This document shows positions 14,198 to 24,849 of a stretch of 64,000 bases of DNA, piece after piece (positions within the stretch are counted from its first letter, which is position 1; every line of letters begins with the position of its first letter). Position numbers and translations under genes: made by a program. This DNA is from Chloroflexota bacterium (GTDB lineage: Bacteria > Chloroflexota > Anaerolineae > Aggregatilineales > Phototrophicaceae): NCBI GenBank assembly GCA_016223085.1, contig JACRPS010000004.1, positions 186,001 to 250,000 of the forward strand, given 5' to 3'. The notes beneath the pieces were generated by a model. It ran no database searches. It had not been told where the DNA came from and was given only the letters and a program-made list of their open reading frames with translations.

Positions 14198-15409
14198 ATG
14201 TCCTCCCCGCTTAAATACCTGTCCCGCCGTCGGTTTCTTGGTATCAGCGCATCCGGCCTGCTGGCGCTGGCAAACGGCCATTGGCCGAACGCTTCTCGGT
14301 CAAAAGCGGATAAACACACCACCATCCACCTGTATACGTTTGACCCTGACGCAACCACGACGACTGACGCCATAAAAGCGGCGATGTTGTCGGCCACTGA
14401 TTTAAGCTGGTTGCACTCAGGTGATTCAGTGTTTGTGAAGGTGGCGAGCAATTCCAATTACGCACCACCATCGGTCACGTCGCCTGCCGTATTGGAGGGT
14501 GTGGTCGAAACGTTAAAGGAAGCGGGCGCGGGCACGGTCTACGTTGGCGACATGAGTGGCGCGCAGTTTGTACGGCATCTGCCGGACGAGACAATCGGCT
14601 CCACCCGCGAGAACATGCGCCAAAACGGCCTGCTGGCCGCCGCTGAAGCCACGGGCGCGACCATCCACTGCTTTGAAGAAGTGCCGTTTGAGCAGGCGTA
14701 TATTCTAGGCATTCCGCCGGGGGAACACCACTGGGGCGACGATTTGCGTGTGGCGGAAATTCTTGACCGGGTAGATCACATCGTCAATCTGCCGCGCTTG
14801 GGCAAACATGTATTGGCCGGGGCGTCGTTGGGATTAAAAAACGCGGTCGGCTGGATCAGCGATCACAGCCGCATGGTGCTGCACCGGGACGCGGCCACCT
14901 TCCAAGAGAAAATTGCAGAGATTAACGCGATCCCACAGTTGGCCGATAAAATGCGGCTGACGCTGACATTGGCCGATCAGGCTTTGACCACTTATGGCCC
15001 GGACGCGGGTTATCACTTCCCGCTGCGCCAGCCGGTGATAATCGCTTCGGAAGATGTGGTCAGCCACGATCAGGTGGCGCTGCTGGCCCTGCTGTGGGCG
15101 CGGGAACAAACGCCCGACGTGGCGCTGGCGGAAGACCCTTACCCTACCCAGTCGAATGGCTTAAACTGGTGGTTCGTGCGCGTGACGTGGGATAACGAAA
15201 TCGCCGGCTATCAGGACCTGCCCACGTTTAATAACCCGGCTGCCGCCGATGCCCTGACGCACATCAACCTCGCCTTCGACCTGCTGCATGGTGGGCGGCC
15301 TGATAGCATTGACGTAGTTCCGGGCGGACTCCGGCTGGATGAAACGCTGGCAAGCGCATTGACAGTGGACCCCGATCTGCGTATCAATCTGCGCCAGAGC
15401 GCGCTGTGA
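14198..15409 (+). CDS. Tat-exported DUF362 domain protein
   Basis: The protein has 403 residues. The N-terminus SRRRFLGISASGLLALA is a twin-arginine signal, so the folded protein is exported, possibly with a cofactor. The body matches DUF362 (residues about 45-330): it contains VFVKVASNSNY, the GVVETLKEAGAGTVYVGD segment and the long NLPRLGKHVLAGASLGLKNAVGWISD motif. Many DUF362 proteins carry ferredoxin-type cysteines, but here only a single Cys is visible (about residue 160), so no 4Fe-4S cluster is expected. The gene lies 130 bp upstream of three exported cytochrome genes on the same strand, which suggests, but does not prove, a shared redox function. No strong ribosome-binding site is visible. 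Confidence 0.8.
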   Translation: MSSPLKYLSRRRFLGISASGLLALANGHWPNASRSKADKHTTIHLYTFDPDATTTTDAIKAAMLSATDLSWLHSGDSVFVKVASNSNYAPPSVTSPAVLEGVVETLKEAGAGTVYVGDMSGAQFVRHLPDETIGSTRENMRQNGLLAAAEATGATIHCFEEVPFEQAYILGIPPGEHHWGDDLRVAEILDRVDHIVNLPRLGKHVLAGASLGLKNAVGWISDHSRMVLHRDAATFQEKIAEINAIPQLADKMRLTLTLADQALTTYGPDAGYHFPLRQPVIIASEDVVSHDQVALLALLWAREQTPDVALAEDPYPTQSNGLNWWFVRVTWDNEIAGYQDLPTFNNPAAADALTHINLAFDLLHGGRPDSIDVVPGGLRLDETLASALTVDPDLRINLRQSAL

Positions 15410-15538
15410 GCAACGTCACCGGCAAGGCGTGTCAAATGTTATCTGTTGCCGCTTCCGGCTCACCCTCTCCCGCAGCCAGTACGGCGCGTGTTACACTTGC
15501 CCGATACGAACTTCGATGATCGCCTGCGCTGTACCACC

Positions 15539-17194
15539 ATGCTGACGAGCAAATTCCGGGGAATTACCGGCTTTAGTCTGCTAACGGCGGGAATCCTTGT
15601 TACGATCCTGGTATCTCAATCAGGATGGCGTATTGTTCGCGGTGTAGTCCTGGATGATAAAACGCCAGTATCAGGAGCGATTGTTCGCATTCAGGGCAGC
15701 GCCACGTTTACGATGACCAATGGGCGCGGCGAATTTGAAATTGCCGCACCTCCTGCTGGTACGCCGCTAACCGCCTGGTCGCCCGGCTATTATGTGTCCG
15801 CTACCAGCGCCGAAAACCAGGTGATACAACTGCGCCGCCACACAACCCGCGATAATCCCAGCTACGACTTCATCAGCGCAACCGAGACCAATTCGGACAG
15901 AGCCTGTCGACAGTGCCACGCCGGACAGCCCGCGATGCCGGTAGATGAGTGGCAGCAGGATGCCCACGCGCAGGCGGCAGTTAATCCGCGCTTTCTATCG
16001 CTGTACAACGGAACGACGCTCGACGGGCGAACAGGTAAGCCGACGCAGTACCGATTCGATATGGACGCTGGCCTCAACGTGCCGGTTGCGCCATCGCTCG
16101 GTCAGGCTGGTGTCGGCGCGGGTTTCCGGCTCGATCTTCCCGATCAGGCCGGGCCATGCGCGGCCTGCCACGTGCCCATCCTGGCGCTGGAATCGCCGTA
16201 CAACGCCAACCCGAACGCTGCAACGGGCGTGGCGCGGGAGGGCATCACCTGCGATTTCTGCCACAAGCTCTGGAACGTGCGTGTGAACGCTGACGGGCTG
16301 CCCTCACCGCATCTGCCGGGTGTGCTGTCGGTGCAGATGCTGCGCCCGCCGGAAGGCGAGCAGGTCTTTCTCGGCCCGTTTGACGACACCCCCGGCAGCG
16401 ACATCTTCTCGCCGCTGCAAAACGAAAGCCGCTTCTGCGCGGCCTGTCATACCGGCACGTTCTGGGGTGTAACCATGTACAACAGTTTCGGTGAATGGCT
16501 GGACAGCCCGTACAGCGACCCGACGACCGGCCAGACCTGCCAGGACTGCCACATGCCGCATACGGGCGTTACCGGCTTTGTCAACCTGCCGCCAGACGTG
16601 ACGCAGTTTGTGCCGCAGCGCGACCCGCAGACCATTTTTAGCCACCGGATGCCGGGCGCTTCCGATGTTGACCTGCTGCAAAACACGGCCACACTGGAAC
16701 TTAACGCCCACGCCGATGGCAATGAACTGCTGGTCACGGCGCGGGTGACAAACACCAACGCCGGCCATCACATTCCAACCGACAATCCGCTGAGAAACAT
16801 GCTGCTGTTAATTGACGCACGTGATATACAGGGCCAACGCCTCTCATTGCGCGAAGGGCCAATCCTGCCTGACTGGGCGGGAATGGGTGACGAAGCCAGT
16901 GGCCATTATGCCGGTCTGCCGGGCGTATTATACGCCAAAATCCTGGCCGATTTTTATACGGGCGAAATGCCGACAGCGGCCTACTGGCGGCAGACACGGC
17001 TAGCCAGCGATAACCGCATCCCGGCGCTGGCAACGGACGAATCCGTGTATCGCTTCGCGCTGCCAGGCGCTGCCGCGGTCACGGTCGAAGCGCGGTTGAT
17101 CTTCCGGCGCGCGTTCATCGAACTGATGGAACAGAAAGCGTGGGATACGCCGGATATTCTGATGGAACAGGCGCGGGTGACAATCGAACCATGA
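15539..17194 (+). CDS. exported pentaheme c-type cytochrome with carboxypeptidase regulatory-like domain
   Basis: I start at ATG 15539, giving 551 residues. This puts a hydrophobic signal/anchor (GFSLLTAGILVTILVSQSGW) right at the N-terminus. The longer frame from TTG 15446 would add 31 unlikely residues. Residues about 35-80 resemble a carboxypeptidase-regulatory/CNA-B-like beta-sandwich (VRGVVLDDKTPVSGAIVRI). Five canonical CxxCH heme motifs follow: CRQCH, CAACH, CDFCH, CAACH and CQDCH. Two HxP-type His residues that could be distal ligands are visible, for example in the HIPTDNP segment. The C-terminal 200 residues look beta-rich. It is likely an extracytoplasmic electron carrier or a cytochrome c554-like oxidoreductase. 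Its stop overlaps the next start by ATGA, so the two are coupled. Confidence 0.85.
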   Translation: MLTSKFRGITGFSLLTAGILVTILVSQSGWRIVRGVVLDDKTPVSGAIVRIQGSATFTMTNGRGEFEIAAPPAGTPLTAWSPGYYVSATSAENQVIQLRRHTTRDNPSYDFISATETNSDRACRQCHAGQPAMPVDEWQQDAHAQAAVNPRFLSLYNGTTLDGRTGKPTQYRFDMDAGLNVPVAPSLGQAGVGAGFRLDLPDQAGPCAACHVPILALESPYNANPNAATGVAREGITCDFCHKLWNVRVNADGLPSPHLPGVLSVQMLRPPEGEQVFLGPFDDTPGSDIFSPLQNESRFCAACHTGTFWGVTMYNSFGEWLDSPYSDPTTGQTCQDCHMPHTGVTGFVNLPPDVTQFVPQRDPQTIFSHRMPGASDVDLLQNTATLELNAHADGNELLVTARVTNTNAGHHIPTDNPLRNMLLLIDARDIQGQRLSLREGPILPDWAGMGDEASGHYAGLPGVLYAKILADFYTGEMPTAAYWRQTRLASDNRIPALATDESVYRFALPGAAAVTVEARLIFRRAFIELMEQKAWDTPDILMEQARVTIEP

Positions 17195-19029
17195 GCCGTC
17201 ACCTGCTTTTGATCGGGATAGTATTGCTATTGCTGGCAGCCTGCGGCGCTCCTCAGGTGACGCTGACATTCGTTCGCACGCCCACGCCGACAGTCGAAAT
17301 CACGCCCGTGCCGCTGCTGCTGACGCCGGTGCAAACGCCCCAACCACTGCCCGGCCTGCCGCCGCTGACCAGCAGCATATCCAGCAAGCCGCTGGCGCTG
17401 CACGGCCAAACACTGGTCACAGCCAACGCCGACAGCGGCAGCATAACGCTGGTTGACACGGCCACGCTCGACGTGCTGGCGGAAATCCCGGTCGGCACAG
17501 ACCCGCGTTCGGTTGCTATCACGCCGGACGGCCAGCTTGCCCTGGTCACGCTGCGGCAGGATAACGCGCTCGCGCTGGTACGGCTGGACAAGCGCCGCCG
17601 TGAAACACTGCTGCCAATCGGCCACATGCCCTATGGTGTCGTCACCGATGGCCGGCGCGCTTACGTCAGCCTGTTTGCGGACGATCAAATTGCCATACTT
17701 GATCTGCAATCAGGCGAAGTCCTGTACCGCGTCAACACGCCGGACGCGCCCGCTGGACTGGTGCTCAGCGGCGAGTGGCTGCTGGTCACACATTTTTACA
17801 GCGGACAGGTATCGCTGCTGAACGTGCAGCGCACGCCGTTTCTGGTCGGCAAGACCAACGTAGAACCCGACGGCAACCTGGCGCGCAGCATCATTGTTGC
17901 GCCCGATGGTCGTCGCGCCTACCTGCCATTGACGCGCACCGGCCTGGCGTTGATCTCGTTGCAGTACATGCAGGACTGGTTTCCGGTCGTCGGCGTGCTG
18001 GACATCGCCACCATGACCAGCGACCGCAGCGCCCGCCTCACGTTGTCATCGGTTGACCGCGCCGCCAATATGCCCTCCGACGCGGCCTTCTCGCCGGATG
18101 GCCGCACCCTGTACGTGACCCTCGCCGGCAGTGACGCGGTGCTGGCGTTGGATGCAGGGACACATGGTAGCCTGGCGCGTATTCCAGTTGGGGCGAATCC
18201 GGTCGGCATCGTGCAGGACGCCGACCACGCCTTTGTGTTAAACGCGCTGGATGGCACACTGTCGGTTATCAACACAGCCAATTTTTCCGTTACAGATACG
18301 ATTCGCGTCACCACCATTCCCCTGAGTCCTGAACTCCTGCGCGGCAAAGTGCTGTTTCACCGCGCCGCGGACCCAGCATTAAGTGACGGTTCGATTAGCT
18401 GCGCAACCTGCCATTTTGATGGCGGCGCGGACGCGCGCACGTGGATTAACTTTCGCAGCGGACCACGTAATACGCCGGCGCTGGGCGGCGCAGCGGCACT
18501 GCCACCGTTTAACTGGGGCGGCGATATGGCCGAACTGCACGACACCATCGAAGACCAGATACGCAACGTGATGTTTGGTGACGGCCTGATTTCTGGCGCG
18601 TTTGACCCGACCACCGGCCAGGCTGATGCAGGGCACTCCACCGATCTGGACGCGCTTGCGGCTTACGTGGCTTCGCTCGAACCCTGGCCGAGTCCCTATC
18701 GAGTGCCGGACGGCACACTGAACGAAGCGGCGCGACGCGGGATGCGCCTGTTCCTCAGCGGATCGCCCGACTGTAGCTGCCATTCGCCACCTTTGTATAC
18801 CGATCAACAGGCCCACAACCTGGCCGGGGCGGGTTTTTCGCTGGAAGAATATGTGGCGTTTGACACGCCAACCCTGCGCGGCCTTTGGGCGACCGCGCCA
18901 TACATGCACGATGGTGTGGCGCAAACGCTGGAGGAAGTGCTGACGCGTACCGACCCGATTCACAGCGTGGCGGACGAGTTAACCAAGCAGCAGTTGAACG
19001 ATCTGATCGCGTTTTTGTTATCGCTGTAA
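17191..19029 (+). CDS. lipoprotein with YVTN-type propeller and MauG-like di-heme domain (second motif CxCH)
   Basis: The protein has 612 residues from ATG 17191, which overlaps the upstream stop by 4 bp. The signal ends in LLLAAC, a good lipobox, so it is a lipoprotein. A Pro/Thr-rich linker (about 30-60) leads to a beta-propeller (about 65-380) with YVTN-like repeats (ITPDGQLALVT, FSPDGRTLYVTLAGSDAVLALD). The C-terminal 230 residues resemble cytochrome c peroxidase/MauG-like proteins: CATCHFDGG (first heme), RNTPALGG, and the PTLRGLWATAPYMHDG motif near the end. The second heme site reads PDCSCHSPP, that is CxCH, one residue shorter than the family's CxxCH. It may bind heme through one or both Cys residues, or not at all. 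It is likely a surface oxidoreductase. Confidence 0.85.
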   Translation: MSRHLLLIGIVLLLLAACGAPQVTLTFVRTPTPTVEITPVPLLLTPVQTPQPLPGLPPLTSSISSKPLALHGQTLVTANADSGSITLVDTATLDVLAEIPVGTDPRSVAITPDGQLALVTLRQDNALALVRLDKRRRETLLPIGHMPYGVVTDGRRAYVSLFADDQIAILDLQSGEVLYRVNTPDAPAGLVLSGEWLLVTHFYSGQVSLLNVQRTPFLVGKTNVEPDGNLARSIIVAPDGRRAYLPLTRTGLALISLQYMQDWFPVVGVLDIATMTSDRSARLTLSSVDRAANMPSDAAFSPDGRTLYVTLAGSDAVLALDAGTHGSLARIPVGANPVGIVQDADHAFVLNALDGTLSVINTANFSVTDTIRVTTIPLSPELLRGKVLFHRAADPALSDGSISCATCHFDGGADARTWINFRSGPRNTPALGGAAALPPFNWGGDMAELHDTIEDQIRNVMFGDGLISGAFDPTTGQADAGHSTDLDALAAYVASLEPWPSPYRVPDGTLNEAARRGMRLFLSGSPDCSCHSPPLYTDQQAHNLAGAGFSLEEYVAFDTPTLRGLWATAPYMHDGVAQTLEEVLTRTDPIHSVADELTKQQLNDLIAFLLSL

Positions 19030-19054
19030 CGCGGCCTGAACAGGCAGGTGTACC

Positions 19055-21202
19055 ATGTCGAAGTATGTGTTTGTCCTGCGGCCTCTGGCCGTCGCCCTGC
19101 TGGTGATGGCGGCACTGGTTGCGCCACTCAACGCGCAGGTAGCACCCACGCCAACCGGCGGGCAGCCCTGGGACTTGACGTTCACCACGCAGGCAGGTGA
19201 ATTTGCCTTTTACGACGCGCCTGCCGGAGCATCCACGACCGGCAAGCCGGTGGACGTTGGCGACTTTGACGGTGACGGCTGCGGTGACCTCGCCATCACC
19301 GGGCAGAACGCCACTCATCCAGTCGCAGGCGAGTGGCGTGGCAGTGTCGGCCACGTTCGCATCGTCATGAACCTGTGCCAGATCAGCGGGCAGATCGGCA
19401 TGGACGCGCTGACGCCGATGCAGCGGGTCATCACCATTTATGGCGCTTACGCCGGCGATATGGCTGGAACTGAAACCTACGTGGCCGATTTCAACCGGGA
19501 CGGGTTTGACGATCTGCTGTTCAGCGCCCAGAACAGCGATGGCCCGTATCAGGATCGCTCTAACGCGGGGGCGGTGTACCTGCTGCTCGGCGGCTCAACC
19601 TTTGCGCTGCTGCCCGACGTTGACCTGCGCCAACCGCCGTCGAACCTGCTGACGTTTTACGGGGCGACGGCGGAAGACCGCTTCGGGCTGTGGGTCGAAG
19701 GCGGGGACTTCGACGGAGACGGTATAAAGGACATGCTGATCGGCGCGAACCAGGCGGACGGCGAAGGCGACCACCGGATTAATGCGGGCGAGGCGTGGAT
19801 TCTCTACGGCGATATGAACCTGACCAGCAAGTACCGCCCGGTAACAGACATGCAGCAGCCACCTGCCGACGCCACCCGGATTATCGGCGCGAACTACGAC
19901 GACCTGCTTGGCTCAACCGTGTGGGGCGACGATCTGAACGGCGACGGCTACGATGACGCAATTGTAAACGCCGCGCTGTGGCGCGCCTCCAGCGGCATCG
20001 GCGGGCTGTCGTTCGGCGGCGGCGATGGCCCAGCTAACCGGCGGTATAATAGCGGCGAGGCATTTGTGATCTTCGGTCGCTCCGGCATTCGCGGCCAGAC
20101 GGTTGATCTGGCGACAAAAATAGATGAAACAGGCAGGCCGATAGACACCTCTATCACGGTGATTTATGGCCGCAACGCCAATGACCTGCTGGGGGAAGAA
20201 ATCGCCGTCGGCGATCTGGACGGCGACGGTCAGTACGATCTCATCCTGGGCACGCTGGTCGGCGATGGGCCGGAACTGGACATGGACGAAGCCGGCGAAG
20301 CATGGGTGATCTATACCGGCGCTTCGTTCGCCGGTCAGATGATTGACCTGGCCGACCCGCCGCTGGGACAAACGGTGGTTATCTATCCTGACCAGCCGGA
20401 CAGCAAGGCCGGCGACACCCTCCGCGCTGCCGACCTGGACCGGGATGGCGTAGACGACCTGTTTTACGGCGCGCCGGACTACGACGCACGCGGTTATGAT
20501 GGCCGCCTTCGCCACAACGCTGGCATGATGGCCGTTATCTTTGGTGAAAAAGGCGGCCTGCCCAACCGGGGCGGCCAGATTTTGCTGTTCCAGCCGCCCG
20601 CCAACCTGCGGGTCAAGTTCATCGTCGGCGCAGATGACAACGACATGATGCCCTACGCGCTGGCAATTGCCGATGTAAACCATGATGGGGTGGTAGACAT
20701 CGTACCCAACGCGATGGGTGGCGACGGCCAGCGCAATGACCGCATCAACGCCGGCGAAATTTACGTGCTGGACGGCGCGGAATTCCTCTCAGCCGACCAC
20801 GTTTACGTTGTGGAGACGGATACACCGGAAACTGCACCTGCCCCGCCCACCGCCGCCGTCGCCACCACTGCCACCCCCCTGCCCTCGGCAACTGTCGCAG
20901 CGGCGGTGGGCGATCTGGAACGCGGCCAGCAGCGGTTTGAAGAAACGTGCGCCGGCTGTCACGGCTTTAAGGGCGAGGGTGTTCCGGCGCTGGGGCTGCC
21001 ACTGGTCACGTCGCCGCTGGTGCTGTTCGCCAGCGATGCCGATCTGCTGGCCTTCCTGCGCGAAGGTCGCCCTGCCGGGCATCCCGACAACGTGACCGGC
21101 GTGTCTATGCCACCCAGCGGCGGGCGGCCCGACTGGAGCGATGCCGAGTTTTTGGACATCATCGCTTACCTGCGCTGGCTGCGTGACAACACTGATAAAT
21201 AG
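19055..21202 (+). CDS. secreted FG-GAP (integrin-like) propeller fused to a cytochrome c domain
   Basis: The protein has 715 residues. An N-terminal signal peptide ends near PLNAQ (about residue 28). Seven FG-GAP/calcium-loop repeats follow, each with a DxDGDG-like core (DFDGDGCGDL, DFNRDGFDDL, DFDGDGIKDM, DLNGDGYDDA, DLDGDGQYDL, DLDRDGVDDL, DVNHDGVVDI). They suit a calcium-binding seven-bladed propeller. A Pro/Ala/Thr-rich linker (about 585-615) joins this to a C-terminal monoheme cytochrome c domain of about 90 residues. That domain has CAGCH and a downstream Met in VSMPPSGG as a probable sixth ligand. An AGGTG site precedes the ATG. It is the third cytochrome in a row, 25 bp after the MauG-like gene, and probably a partner in electron transfer outside the membrane. 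Confidence 0.88.
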   Translation: MSKYVFVLRPLAVALLVMAALVAPLNAQVAPTPTGGQPWDLTFTTQAGEFAFYDAPAGASTTGKPVDVGDFDGDGCGDLAITGQNATHPVAGEWRGSVGHVRIVMNLCQISGQIGMDALTPMQRVITIYGAYAGDMAGTETYVADFNRDGFDDLLFSAQNSDGPYQDRSNAGAVYLLLGGSTFALLPDVDLRQPPSNLLTFYGATAEDRFGLWVEGGDFDGDGIKDMLIGANQADGEGDHRINAGEAWILYGDMNLTSKYRPVTDMQQPPADATRIIGANYDDLLGSTVWGDDLNGDGYDDAIVNAALWRASSGIGGLSFGGGDGPANRRYNSGEAFVIFGRSGIRGQTVDLATKIDETGRPIDTSITVIYGRNANDLLGEEIAVGDLDGDGQYDLILGTLVGDGPELDMDEAGEAWVIYTGASFAGQMIDLADPPLGQTVVIYPDQPDSKAGDTLRAADLDRDGVDDLFYGAPDYDARGYDGRLRHNAGMMAVIFGEKGGLPNRGGQILLFQPPANLRVKFIVGADDNDMMPYALAIADVNHDGVVDIVPNAMGGDGQRNDRINAGEIYVLDGAEFLSADHVYVVETDTPETAPAPPTAAVATTATPLPSATVAAAVGDLERGQQRFEETCAGCHGFKGEGVPALGLPLVTSPLVLFASDADLLAFLREGRPAGHPDNVTGVSMPPSGGRPDWSDAEFLDIIAYLRWLRDNTDK

Positions 21203-21511: not shown

Positions 21512-21618
21512 GCTGATATGGCGGGTTAGACTATTGCGCCAGACATGCCTGCGGTCACAGGCAGGGAACCTATTTGCATTACATTTGCCGCGCAAGTTTA
21601 CAAGGTCAGGGAGGGAGC

Positions 21619-24600
21619 ATGTTGTACAGACAGTTCTCACGTTTTCGATGGGCACGCTGTTTTACCCTGTTGTTCGCGGCCATCATTGTCACCTTCTCCG
21701 GCAGGCCCGTACCCACACTGGCACAATCCACCACGCCATCATGCGCGGTTACCCCAGACAAGCTGGACGGCCAGGGGTTAAGCGTTACCGGCTTTGGCCT
21801 GTCCGTCACCCAACTTGGTCTGAACGTCACGCAGCTAGGTTTGAGTGTCACCGGCTTTGGCCTGTCCGTAACGCAGTTCGGGCTGAACGTGACCCAGTTT
21901 GGCACGCCGGAACAGATCATCACCGACATTACCAATAATATTGTCACGCCGGCCTGGCTCACCAATCTGCTGCCGGGGATTCAGGGCGGTACAGGCTACA
22001 ACGGCACCAAGACGGCCCTGCTGATCGTGGATGACTTCAGCAGCCCGCAGGCGCACGGTTACGACGTGCGCAAAGTGGCGGAAGACCTGCGCAACGCCGC
22101 TGACAGCGCCGACGATGGTCAGCGGAATAACAGCCCCAACATCACGCTGTTTAACGTGGACATCAGCACCGAGGCGATTGGCTTTGTCTCCACCGCCATC
22201 GCGCAGACCATCCGCGATAACGTCAATAGCCTGATCGGACAGGGTTACCAGCACTTTGTTATCAATATGAGCTTCGGACTCGTGCCCTGCACCGACGTGT
22301 TTAACGGCACATTGACCGATGAGGAAACCGGCCAGACCCGGAGTTTCAACGTCACCTTCAACTACGACAGCTTCGAGGCTGCCCGCGACCAAACCCTGGC
22401 TGCCAAAACCAAGCAGGTCAGCCCGGTGCTGGAATGTGTTGCCAACAACGGCAACGGCTCGTACACCGCCTACTTTGGCTACGAAAACCGTAATCCGGTC
22501 GCCGTGACCATCCCGCGCGGCAACAATAACCGCTTCCATCCAGAACCGAAAGATCGCGGCCAGCCGACCGTGTTTGGGCCGGGACGCCAGCGATTTGTAT
22601 TTAAGGTAGATTTCAACGGCAGGAATCTGGTGTGGCAGCTTAAAGGCCCCGATGGCAAGGGGCGCACCGCCACCGCCAGCTCCAACCCGACACAGGACTG
22701 CGCCCGACGGGGGATTACCCCACCGGCGCAGGGTAATCTGGTCATAGTTCCCACCGGCTATGGATTGTCGCAGTACGTGGTGGAACGCCTGGGAATCCCG
22801 ACAGCTTTCGCAGATGAATACCTGTACCATCTTGTTTCAGTGGCACAGGACGACCCGATCAGCGGCCTGCGGCCTTTGATGCGTGGGTATCTGGAGCGCA
22901 GCTACCAGGAACAGCAGGACAGCAATCCTGCCACAATCTTCGCGGTTATCCCGGTCGCCTCGTCCGGCAACTTCCGCCACCTGTTCGGGGGAACGCCGCT
23001 CGCGCCTTCGATCTTCCCGGAGATCATCGCCACCGGCGCAACCCTGGGTGACTATGGCCCACGCTGGACGCTCTCCCACGATGGGAATACACTCGCCCCT
23101 GGCGCCGGCTATCCATTTGAATACGACGCCCAGGGCAAGATTTCACGCATCGGCGCGGGCACATCCTACGCTTCGCCCTACTTCAGTATGCTCTCGGCAC
23201 TGTGGCTGACCTACCCAAGCGCCTGTACGTTTGGCAACGGCCTGCCACCGCTGACAGCCAATGCTACGCCCAAGAATACGAACGCCATCATCATCCCCAA
23301 CGGGGCATCACCACTGGCCTGCGCCAAGCCACAGCTTACTGCCGACCTGAGTCTAACTAAAACGGACGTGGCTGACCCGGTTATCGCCGGCGACGACGTG
23401 TCGTACATGGTGACAGTTATGAACAGCGGCCCGGCCACCGCCGCCAATGTTGTTGTCACCGACAGCATCCCAACCGGGACGACCCTCAAATCGGCCACGC
23501 CATCCAGCGAGAGCGCCTCTTGTGAAGGGAGCGTCTGTAACCTGGGCGACATGACCAGCGGCCAGAGCATTTCCATCCTGTTTGTGGTGACGGCACCGGC
23601 GACGGGCACAACCATCACCAACACAGCCATCGTCGCTTCGGAAACACCTGACCCCAACACAACTAACAACCAGGATTCTGAAACGACGACGATAAAAGCG
23701 CTGGAAAAGGTCAGCCCGGTGCTGGAATGTGTCGCCGTTAACGGCGAAGGCAGCTATCACGCTTACTTCGGTTATAACAACCCGAACAGCATCGCCGTTA
23801 CCATTCCGATTGGCCCGAACAACGAGTTTGTTCCCGCCCCACAGGATCGCGGCCAGGGGACAATCTTCCAGCCGGGGCGGCAGGTGGATGTCTTCTCCTT
23901 CAGCTTCAATGGCAGCAATCAGGTCTGGAAGCTGAACGGCATAACTGCCACTGCCAGCAGCGATTTCCGTCAGCGCTGCGGCGATGTCGGCGTTACCAAG
24001 AGCGCGCCGGAACAGGTCACGCTCGGCGAACATGTCGTTTATACCCTGACGGTCAGCAACAACAGCCCGCGCCAGGTAGATAACATCGTCCTGACCGACG
24101 CGCTGCCAGATAACGTGACCGTGAAATGGGCGTCGCCGGAGTGCAGCATCTACGGCAATACCGTCACCTGCAATCTGGGTACGCTGGCGGGCAGCAGCAG
24201 CAAAGCGGTGACGATCAAGGCCACGCCGACCAGCGCCGGCACCGTGACCAACACGGTGAATCTCACTTCGTCGGAAGGGGCGAAGGGTAATCCGGCCAAC
24301 AACAGCGCCACCGTCTCGACCTATGTTGCTGAACCACCTCCCCCACCCGATTATGACGAAGATGGGTTGGCGGATACGGTTGATAACTGCCCGGAAGTCT
24401 ATAGCCCAGACCAGACTGACACGGATGGAGACGGCATTGGCAACGCCTGCGACCCGACACCTAACGGTGACAGCGACAGCGACGGCGTGGATAATGCTGC
24501 CGATAACTGCCCGGTGATCCCCAACACTGACCAGCTTGATACGGATGGTGATCGTCTGGGCGATGCCTGCGACCCTACGCCCAACGGTGATACTGACGGG

Positions 24601-24849
24601 GACGGGGTAGATAACACCCTTGATAACTGTGCGGTCAACGCCAACCCCGATCAAACGGACACCGATGGAGATGGCATCGGCGATGCCTGCGACTCCACAC
24701 CAACCGGAGATGTGGATGGTGACGGTCTGGACAACGCCCGTGATAACTGTCCGGCGGTGTCCAATCCTGATCAGAGTGACATGAATGGAAACGGCGTTGG
24801 TGATGTGTGCGAACCGGAAGCCACCGAAGAACCCGGTTCGTCGGCGTAA
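21619..24849 (+). CDS. large secreted subtilisin-like (S8) protein with DUF11 and thrombospondin type 3 repeats
   Basis: The protein has 1076 residues from ATG 21619, preceded by GAGGGAG. The signal peptide ends near PTLAQ (about 36). Residues 53-94 are six tandem 7-residue repeats (GLSVTGF type). The S8 domain follows: Asp138 in LLIVDDF, His146 in QAHGYDV, oxyanion Asn451 in ASSGN, and Ser516 in GTSYASP, so the catalytic set is complete. A domain of about 95 residues (267-361, starting VSPVLECVANNGNG) is inserted between His and Ser. It recurs at about 695-785 (VSPVLECVAVNGEG). Two DUF11-type repeats and four calcium-binding thrombospondin type 3 repeats (DTDGDGIGNACD type) end the protein. 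No sortase motif or C-terminal anchor is seen. It is likely a secreted or cell-surface protease. Confidence 0.88.
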   Translation: MLYRQFSRFRWARCFTLLFAAIIVTFSGRPVPTLAQSTTPSCAVTPDKLDGQGLSVTGFGLSVTQLGLNVTQLGLSVTGFGLSVTQFGLNVTQFGTPEQIITDITNNIVTPAWLTNLLPGIQGGTGYNGTKTALLIVDDFSSPQAHGYDVRKVAEDLRNAADSADDGQRNNSPNITLFNVDISTEAIGFVSTAIAQTIRDNVNSLIGQGYQHFVINMSFGLVPCTDVFNGTLTDEETGQTRSFNVTFNYDSFEAARDQTLAAKTKQVSPVLECVANNGNGSYTAYFGYENRNPVAVTIPRGNNNRFHPEPKDRGQPTVFGPGRQRFVFKVDFNGRNLVWQLKGPDGKGRTATASSNPTQDCARRGITPPAQGNLVIVPTGYGLSQYVVERLGIPTAFADEYLYHLVSVAQDDPISGLRPLMRGYLERSYQEQQDSNPATIFAVIPVASSGNFRHLFGGTPLAPSIFPEIIATGATLGDYGPRWTLSHDGNTLAPGAGYPFEYDAQGKISRIGAGTSYASPYFSMLSALWLTYPSACTFGNGLPPLTANATPKNTNAIIIPNGASPLACAKPQLTADLSLTKTDVADPVIAGDDVSYMVTVMNSGPATAANVVVTDSIPTGTTLKSATPSSESASCEGSVCNLGDMTSGQSISILFVVTAPATGTTITNTAIVASETPDPNTTNNQDSETTTIKALEKVSPVLECVAVNGEGSYHAYFGYNNPNSIAVTIPIGPNNEFVPAPQDRGQGTIFQPGRQVDVFSFSFNGSNQVWKLNGITATASSDFRQRCGDVGVTKSAPEQVTLGEHVVYTLTVSNNSPRQVDNIVLTDALPDNVTVKWASPECSIYGNTVTCNLGTLAGSSSKAVTIKATPTSAGTVTNTVNLTSSEGAKGNPANNSATVSTYVAEPPPPPDYDEDGLADTVDNCPEVYSPDQTDTDGDGIGNACDPTPNGDSDSDGVDNAADNCPVIPNTDQLDTDGDRLGDACDPTPNGDTDGDGVDNTLDNCAVNANPDQTDTDGDGIGDACDSTPTGDVDGDGLDNARDNCPAVSNPDQSDMNGNGVGDVCEPEATEEPGSSA
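21775..21900 (+). repeat. tandem 63-bp duplication encoding six 7-residue repeats
   Basis: Two 63-base units encode GLSVTGF-GLSVTQL-GLNVTQL and GLSVTGF-GLSVTQF-GLNVTQF. Each unit is itself three 21-base repeats. The regular Gly-Leu-x-Val-Thr spacing is unusual for a propeptide and suggests a short beta-solenoid or a flexible, variable segment. Confidence 0.85.

What the first reader, a model, noticed from the sequence alone, without database searches (positions are those of the whole stretch)
14198..21202. Exported redox operon: DUF362, pentaheme cytochrome, MauG-like lipoprotein, FG-GAP-cytochrome
Three cytochromes follow each other with ATGA and 25-bp spacing, each fused to a different beta domain (CNA-B/regulatory-like, YVTN propeller, FG-GAP propeller). 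A Tat-exported DUF362 protein without ferredoxin cysteines lies upstream. This combination suggests an electron-transfer assembly at the outside of the membrane, perhaps for extracellular oxidation or protein modification. I know no described system with this exact set.
Basis: partly seen in the sequence, partly recalled or inferred. Interest (0 to 1): 0.62.

Follow-up and report, generated by a model that had tools for sequence, protein, structure and literature searches.

The report
Conserved exported cytochrome operon in Chloroflexota
A set of four exported redox proteins is really kept together in a group of Chloroflexota bacteria, often beside a respiratory bc complex, and its likely enzyme resembles two subunits of hydrazine synthase and carries a consistently shortened heme-attachment motif (CXCH) that I found described for no natural cytochrome.

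Summary
The four ORFs lie at the stated places, with a 4-bp ATGA overlap (genes 2/3) and a 25-bp gap (genes 3/4). The set is a real conserved unit: of 154 genomes of the order, 16 hold this DUF362, 18 the close gene-3 clade, 15 both. Labels need changing. Gene 3 ("MauG-like") is closest to hydrazine synthase beta plus gamma in one chain (PDB profile E 5e-21 and 8e-22; CCP 1.5e-9), but has the CCP/MauG Trp and lacks the HZS catalytic His, the third heme-Cys bond and the alpha subunit. DUF362 belongs to the LarA (nickel-pincer) clan. In eight genomes a cytochrome b/Rieske/tetraheme-c complex adjoins the set, so I read it as a quinol-linked electron branch on the outer membrane face; a reductive, peroxidase-like reaction is most likely but inferred. 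The most unusual feature is gene 3's second heme site: C-[SGA]-C-H in 15 of 18 members, CXXCH in three members and in all 11 paralogues read. Whether heme is attached there is untested. Closest described systems: HZS-beta-gamma-like/FG-GAP clusters and the Geobacter ext cluster.

The parts
14198..15409 (+). Tat-exported DUF362 protein (403 aa), LarA clan
   Evidence: PF04015 113 bits; SRRRFLG twin-arginine motif; AlphaFold2 model (mean pLDDT 53) whose six best VIA-align matches are all LarA-type or LarA-like chains, Z 8.0-9.5; Pfam clan CL0471 shared with LarA's DUF2088 (PMC11770544)
14807..14839 (+). DUF362 motif H204-x3-G-x-S-x-G-x-K214, same spacing as LarA H174...K184
   Evidence: same pattern at H173...K183 of the LarAH5 malate racemase in this genome (L002)
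15539..17194 (+). pentaheme cytochrome c with N-terminal membrane segment, regulatory-like beta domain and C-terminal beta domain
   Evidence: five CXXCH; CarboxypepD_reg 27 bits; weak ExtKL match 30.8 bits
15905..16552 (+). the five CXXCH sites (15905, 16157, 16250, 16436, 16538); site 1 varies (CXXCM or CXXCK) in relatives, sites 2-5 invariant
   Evidence: alignment of 22 homologues
17191..19029 (+). lipoprotein: YVTN beta-propeller plus diheme domain, hydrazine-synthase beta-gamma-like
   Evidence: ATGA overlap with the pentaheme stop
18400..18414 (+). heme I motif C404-ATC-H408 (aligns with HZS gamma His106 site)
18772..18783 (+). heme II motif contracted to C528-S-C530-H531 (CXCH)
   Evidence: CXCH in 15 of 18 block proteins, CXXCH in 3 and in 11 paralogues
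18961..18963 (+). H591, candidate distal ligand of heme II, conserved in the intact members read
   Evidence: aligns with a His of HZS gamma (His332 by offset counting)
19055..21202 (+). FG-GAP (integrin-alpha-like, calcium-loop) propeller fused to a C-terminal monoheme cytochrome c
   Evidence: FG-GAP 105 bits, Cytochrom_C 36 bits; CAGCH at 20948-20962

Best explanation
The four genes form one exocytoplasmic, membrane- and surface-anchored electron-transfer unit of Aggregatilineales-type Chloroflexota, fed from the quinol pool. Electrons leave quinol through a bc complex (encoded next to the set in several relatives; in this genome a separate standard bc complex lies on contig C17). They pass through c-type hemes (tetraheme cytochrome c where present, the cytochrome c of the FG-GAP protein, the pentaheme) to heme II and then heme I of the hydrazine-synthase-beta-gamma-like lipoprotein, which reduces a small oxidant, most likely peroxide-like because its key residue is the CCP/MauG Trp. 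DUF362 is a LarA-clan protein exported folded by Tat; its role is open (a cofactor or substrate-processing accessory). Shown: gene content, conservation, bc linkage, homologies. Inferred: direction of flow, order of carriers, substrate, role of DUF362, attachment of heme at CXCH.
For: Co-conservation: DUF362 in 16 of 154 genomes, gene 3 close clade in 18, both in 15; pentaheme close clade in 17, with gene 3 in 15 (Fisher p about 1e-16, not corrected for relatedness). Same gene order in two families. bc linkage with two arrangements: cyt b-Rieske-tetraheme c downstream of the FG-GAP gene in G043, G049, G054, G059, G076 and G098; divergent cyt b-Rieske with the tetraheme c downstream of FG-GAP in G096 and G091. 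The cyt b, Rieske and c proteins hit quinol:cytochrome c reductase models. Gene 3: HZS gamma 7.6e-22 and beta 4.9e-21 against CCP 1.5e-9; W442 at the gammaHis144 position in all rows read, which in CCP and MauG is Trp (PMC12758564).
Against: The window's own locus, G007, G013, G025 and G108 have no bc genes beside the set, so the quinol link is indirect there. In G091 DUF362 stands alone on another contig, and G093 has DUF362 plus FG-GAP without gene 3, so DUF362 may serve another purpose. A bc complex can run in either direction. No substrate evidence exists. The diheme domain was not modelled reliably.
Confidence: 0.42

Rival explanations
1. Oxidative direction: the unit oxidises an extracellular substrate (perhaps a hydroxy acid handled by the LarA-like DUF362) and hands electrons to the cytochrome c pool or, through a bc complex in reverse, to quinone.
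For: DUF362 is in the LarA clan and keeps the H...K spacing; the anammox reading has hydrazine electrons entering bc1 (PMC12758564).
Against: DUF362 lacks clear equivalents of LarA Arg75 and His108 by eye; DUF362 is not always with the set; gene 3 has a Trp-type CCP site.
Confidence: 0.2
2. Protein modification: gene 3 acts like MauG or MbnH and oxidises a residue in a partner protein, with the propeller as docking platform.
For: CCP_MauG domain over cut-off; MbnH and MauG models hit at 54 and 48 bits.
Against: Below those families' cut-offs (363 and 444 bits); no conserved small partner gene in the set; HZS beta-gamma is a better match.
Confidence: 0.1
3. Extracellular electron-transfer conduit: the cytochromes pass electrons from quinol to an insoluble or cell-external acceptor and gene 3 is a carrier rather than an enzyme.
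For: Parallel with the Geobacter ext cluster (five-heme cytochrome, cyt b, Rieske, four-heme c lipoprotein; PMC5877670); the cyt b hits ExtP at 265 bits (cut-off 290) and the pentaheme ExtKL at 31 bits (cut-off 250).
Against: Nothing in the set resembles a conduit porin or nanowire; gene 3 keeps the Trp and diheme layout of an enzyme.
Confidence: 0.18
4. The CXCH site no longer binds heme covalently; C528-X-C530 forms a disulfide or metal site and gene 3 is functionally monoheme. (This rival concerns the heme site only and can be true together with the others.)
For: CXCH departs from the CXXCH that the Ccm system is known to recognise; CcmF and CcmH homologues are in this genome (L190).
Against: Both Cys, the His and the aligned distal H591 stay conserved in the CXCH members read over about 60-80% protein identity, unlike a decaying site.
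Confidence: 0.25

Closest known systems
Hydrazine synthase beta-gamma subunits (PDB 5C2V; HZS of anammox bacteria)
   Same: YVTN propeller followed by a diheme CCP-like domain; gene 3 is one chain, as in the fused Scalindua form; CXXCH heme I aligned with the gammaHis106 site; a His aligned with a C-terminal gamma His
   Different: gammaHis144 is Trp, gammaCys165 is Met, no HZS alpha in 17 of 18 genomes, second heme motif CXCH
HZS-beta-gamma-like clusters with FG-GAP proteins, clades I-III of PMC12758564
   Same: beta-gamma-like fusion beside an FG-GAP gene; clade I has a c554-type multiheme part fused upstream, here a separate, translationally coupled pentaheme lies upstream
   Different: no alpha homologue; FG-GAP protein carries its own cytochrome c; DUF362 and, in relatives, a bc complex are added
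Diheme cytochrome c peroxidase / MauG / MbnH
   Same: CCP_MauG domain and the Trp of CCP and MauG
   Different: fused propeller, CXCH at heme II, lower sequence similarity than to HZS
Geobacter extHIJKLMNOPQS cluster
   Same: five-heme cytochrome, Rieske, cytochrome b and four-heme cytochrome c in one cluster (in relatives of the window)
   Different: no ExtI porin, no ExtM/ExtN; similarity to ExtKL and ExtP is below the curated cut-offs
LarA-type nickel-pincer racemases
   Same: same Pfam clan as DUF362 (PMC11770544), best structural matches, H...G.S.G.K spacing
   Different: exported by Tat; Arg75 and His108 equivalents not found by eye; nickel-pincer use unknown

Membership tests
Hydrazine synthase | beta propeller plus gamma diheme fold | tested here: met
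   (5c2v_B 4.9e-21, 5c2v_C 7.6e-22); for the propeller (rank 2)
Hydrazine synthase | catalytic gammaHis144 | tested here: not met
   W442 at this position in all 29 rows
Hydrazine synthase | gammaCys165 third covalent heme bond | tested here: not met
   Met461 in all 18 block rows
Hydrazine synthase | alpha subunit | tested here: not met
   PF18582 absent in 17 of 18 block genomes including this one
Diheme CCP / MauG | CCP_MauG domain over gathering score | tested here: met
   36.3 bits against 25.6
Diheme CCP / MauG | two CXXCH motifs | tested here: not met
   second site is CXCH in the window protein and 14 relatives
Diheme CCP / MauG | Trp between the hemes | tested here: met
   W442 aligned at the gammaHis144 position, which is Trp in CCP and MauG
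Diheme CCP / MauG | peroxide-dependent activity | not testable with these tools
   needs purified protein
LarA superfamily (nickel-pincer enzymes) | shared fold with LarA | tested here: inconclusive
   ranks 1-6 LarA-type, Z 8.0-9.5, on a model with mean pLDDT 53; hhalign with one LarA gave nothing
LarA superfamily (nickel-pincer enzymes) | His174 and Lys184 equivalents | tested here: met
   H204 and K214 at the same spacing and pattern
LarA superfamily (nickel-pincer enzymes) | Arg75, His108, His200 equivalents | tested here: inconclusive
   H229 lies 15 residues after K214 (16 in LarA); no Arg or His seen by eye at the other two places
LarA superfamily (nickel-pincer enzymes) | larB, larC, larE cofactor genes in the genome | not tested
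Geobacter ext cluster | ExtKL and ExtP over curated cut-offs | tested here: not met
   30.8 of 250; 264.8 of 290

The most novel reading that the evidence does not exclude
A natural diheme c-type cytochrome family has moved to a contracted CXCH heme-attachment motif that still binds heme covalently in an organism with Ccm-type (CcmF/CcmH) maturation genes, inside a previously undescribed quinol-linked, surface-exposed relative of hydrazine synthase beta-gamma that works with a pentaheme, an FG-GAP cytochrome and a Tat-exported LarA-clan protein.
Probability: 0.3. Interest if true: 0.72.

Novelty: new variant of a known kind. Interest (0 to 1): 0.5.

Why it matters
Hydrazine-synthase-like beta-gamma proteins outside anammox bacteria have, as far as I found, no tested function. 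This locus gives one with stable partners and, in relatives, a dedicated bc complex, so its electron source can be tested. The consistent CXCH site is a clean natural test of how far the CXXCH rule for heme attachment can bend. It also places an exported LarA-clan protein beside respiratory cytochromes.

Tried and rejected
CXCH tied to the pentaheme: rejected, G091 has a pentaheme homologue (first site CXXCM) and a CXXCH gene 3. CXCH as an assembly error: rejected, 15 genomes share it. MauG as nearest relative: rejected. HZS complex: rejected (alpha absent, residues changed). Structure of the diheme domain: model too poor (pLDDT 22-47). DUF362 against a LarA by hhalign: no signal, so the LarA link rests on the Pfam clan, a weak DUF362-HMM hit to a LarA (6e-4), fold ranks and motif. 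Looking for the set outside the order: 400 genomes drawn over the phylum gave only one further protein, at 43% identity (G514, CXXCH, no cytochrome genes beside it on its 5-kb contig). Literature for CXCH: one paper, a motif-search pattern only.

Full report
What is there. Gene 1 (14198-15409) is a 403-aa DUF362 protein with a twin-arginine leader and a single cysteine. Gene 2 (15539-17194) has an N-terminal membrane segment, a weak regulatory-like beta domain and five CXXCH sites. Gene 3 (17191-19029) is a lipoprotein with a YVTN propeller and a diheme domain; its ATG overlaps the gene 2 stop. Gene 4 (19055-21202) starts 25 bp later and joins an FG-GAP propeller to a monoheme cytochrome c. 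The gap before gene 2 is 129 bp.

Is it a unit? Yes. In a first set of 61 genomes every genome with this DUF362 type held all four genes side by side. In the 154 genomes of the order DUF362 occurs in 16, the close gene 3 clade in 18, both in 15. Composition varies: G096 lacks the pentaheme, G093 has only DUF362 and FG-GAP, G091 has DUF362 on another contig than the rest, G081 has no DUF362, and the contigs of G028, G086, G088 and G094 end inside or beside the set. Core of the unit: gene 3 and FG-GAP; pentaheme and DUF362 usually present. The Fisher values (about 1e-16) ignore relatedness; the same order in two families is the stronger argument.

A bc complex goes with it. In five genomes of one family (G043, G049, G054, G059, G076) the genes for cytochrome b, Rieske and a four-heme cytochrome c follow gene 4 directly. 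In the window's family, G098 has the same order, and G096 and G091 have a divergent cytochrome b-Rieske pair with the four-heme cytochrome c after gene 4. The identities were checked on the G043 genes. All 16 block-related genomes tested have some cytochrome b, the window's own on contig C17 beside CcmF- and CcmH-like heme lyase genes. This is what ties the unit to the quinol pool.

What gene 3 is. A profile of five members finds the hydrazine synthase gamma and beta chains at 7.6e-22 and 4.9e-21, and cytochrome c peroxidases at 1.5e-9. The first PDB hit, an archaeal surface-layer YVTN propeller, covers the propeller only. The propeller model ranks HZS beta second. Counting along the alignment, gammaHis106 falls on H408, gammaHis144 on W442 and gammaCys165 on M461; the residue roles are those in PMC12758564. 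Trp at that place is the CCP and MauG state and also the state of the HZS homologues in clades I-III of that paper, which sit beside FG-GAP genes. HZS alpha is missing in 17 of 18 block genomes. So gene 3 works on the HZS beta-gamma plan but is not hydrazine synthase.

The contracted heme site. The second heme motif is C-S-C-H in the window protein and C-[SGA]-C-H in 15 of 18 block proteins from separate assemblies. G028, G091 and G096 have CXXCH, as do 11 paralogues read from the order, the G514 relative and an Anoxybacillus plasmid homologue. With the motif masked, the 15 rows fall on one side of a branch (support 72/60, not strong), compatible with a single change. H591, the candidate distal ligand, is present in the intact members read. 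The gene has no spare cysteine: C18 (lipid), C404, C407, C528, C530. The library search found CXCH only as a motif in a search script; most subscription papers were not searched. Attachment of heme there is not shown.

DUF362. Fold matching of a low-confidence model puts LarA-type or LarA-like chains in ranks 1-6 (Z 8.0-9.5; next 7.0). DUF362 and LarA's DUF2088 are in one Pfam clan (PMC11770544), so the relation is known. The genome also holds a LarAH5-type malate racemase (over cut-off), whose H...G.S.G.K motif has the same spacing as H204-K214. Whether this DUF362 binds a nickel-pincer cofactor is open; profile comparison with that LarA was negative.

Mechanism. I commit to a quinol-fed, outward-facing reductive branch with gene 3 as the enzyme (0.42). 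The quinol link is supported in relatives; direction, substrate and the role of DUF362 are inference. Geobacter's ext cluster is a described parallel in gene content (PMC5877670), but the models' cut-offs are not met.

Verdict. A real, conserved and partly new arrangement of known parts. Its sharpest testable oddity is the CXCH heme site.

Noticed in passing
L083, L084, L085, L086: Homologues of the pentaheme (about 39-42% identity) sit inside what look like oligopeptide ABC-transporter operons, between a permease and an ATPase gene, in four genomes.
   Followed up: no
window 15905-15919 and homologues: The first heme site of the pentaheme family is CXXCM in G059, G081, G091 and G056 and CXXCK in G052, while sites 2-5 are invariant; CXXCK is the catalytic-heme form known from NrfA.
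   Followed up: partly
L002 871-2145 (G000 contig C12): A LarAH5-type nickel-dependent malate racemase in the same genome, over the curated cut-off.
   Followed up: partly
L079 7961-9760, L089 7502-9343: A paralogue of gene 3 with normal CXXCH sites is widespread in the order; in both genomes it lies beside a very large exported-looking ORF and a small regulator-like gene.
   Followed up: no
L190 7991-19901 (G000 contig C17): Standard Rieske, cytochrome b, diheme cytochrome c, an eight-CXXCH protein and CcmF/CcmH-like genes lie together.
   Followed up: partly
window 21574-24849: The next gene is an exported 1091-aa protein with DUF11 and thrombospondin type 3 repeats and a short N-terminal repeat (GLSVTQLGLNVTQLG...), not conserved with the set.
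   Followed up: no
L073 3882-6524, L077 14350-17085: A membrane-pyrophosphatase-like gene lies upstream of the set in two genera.
   Followed up: no
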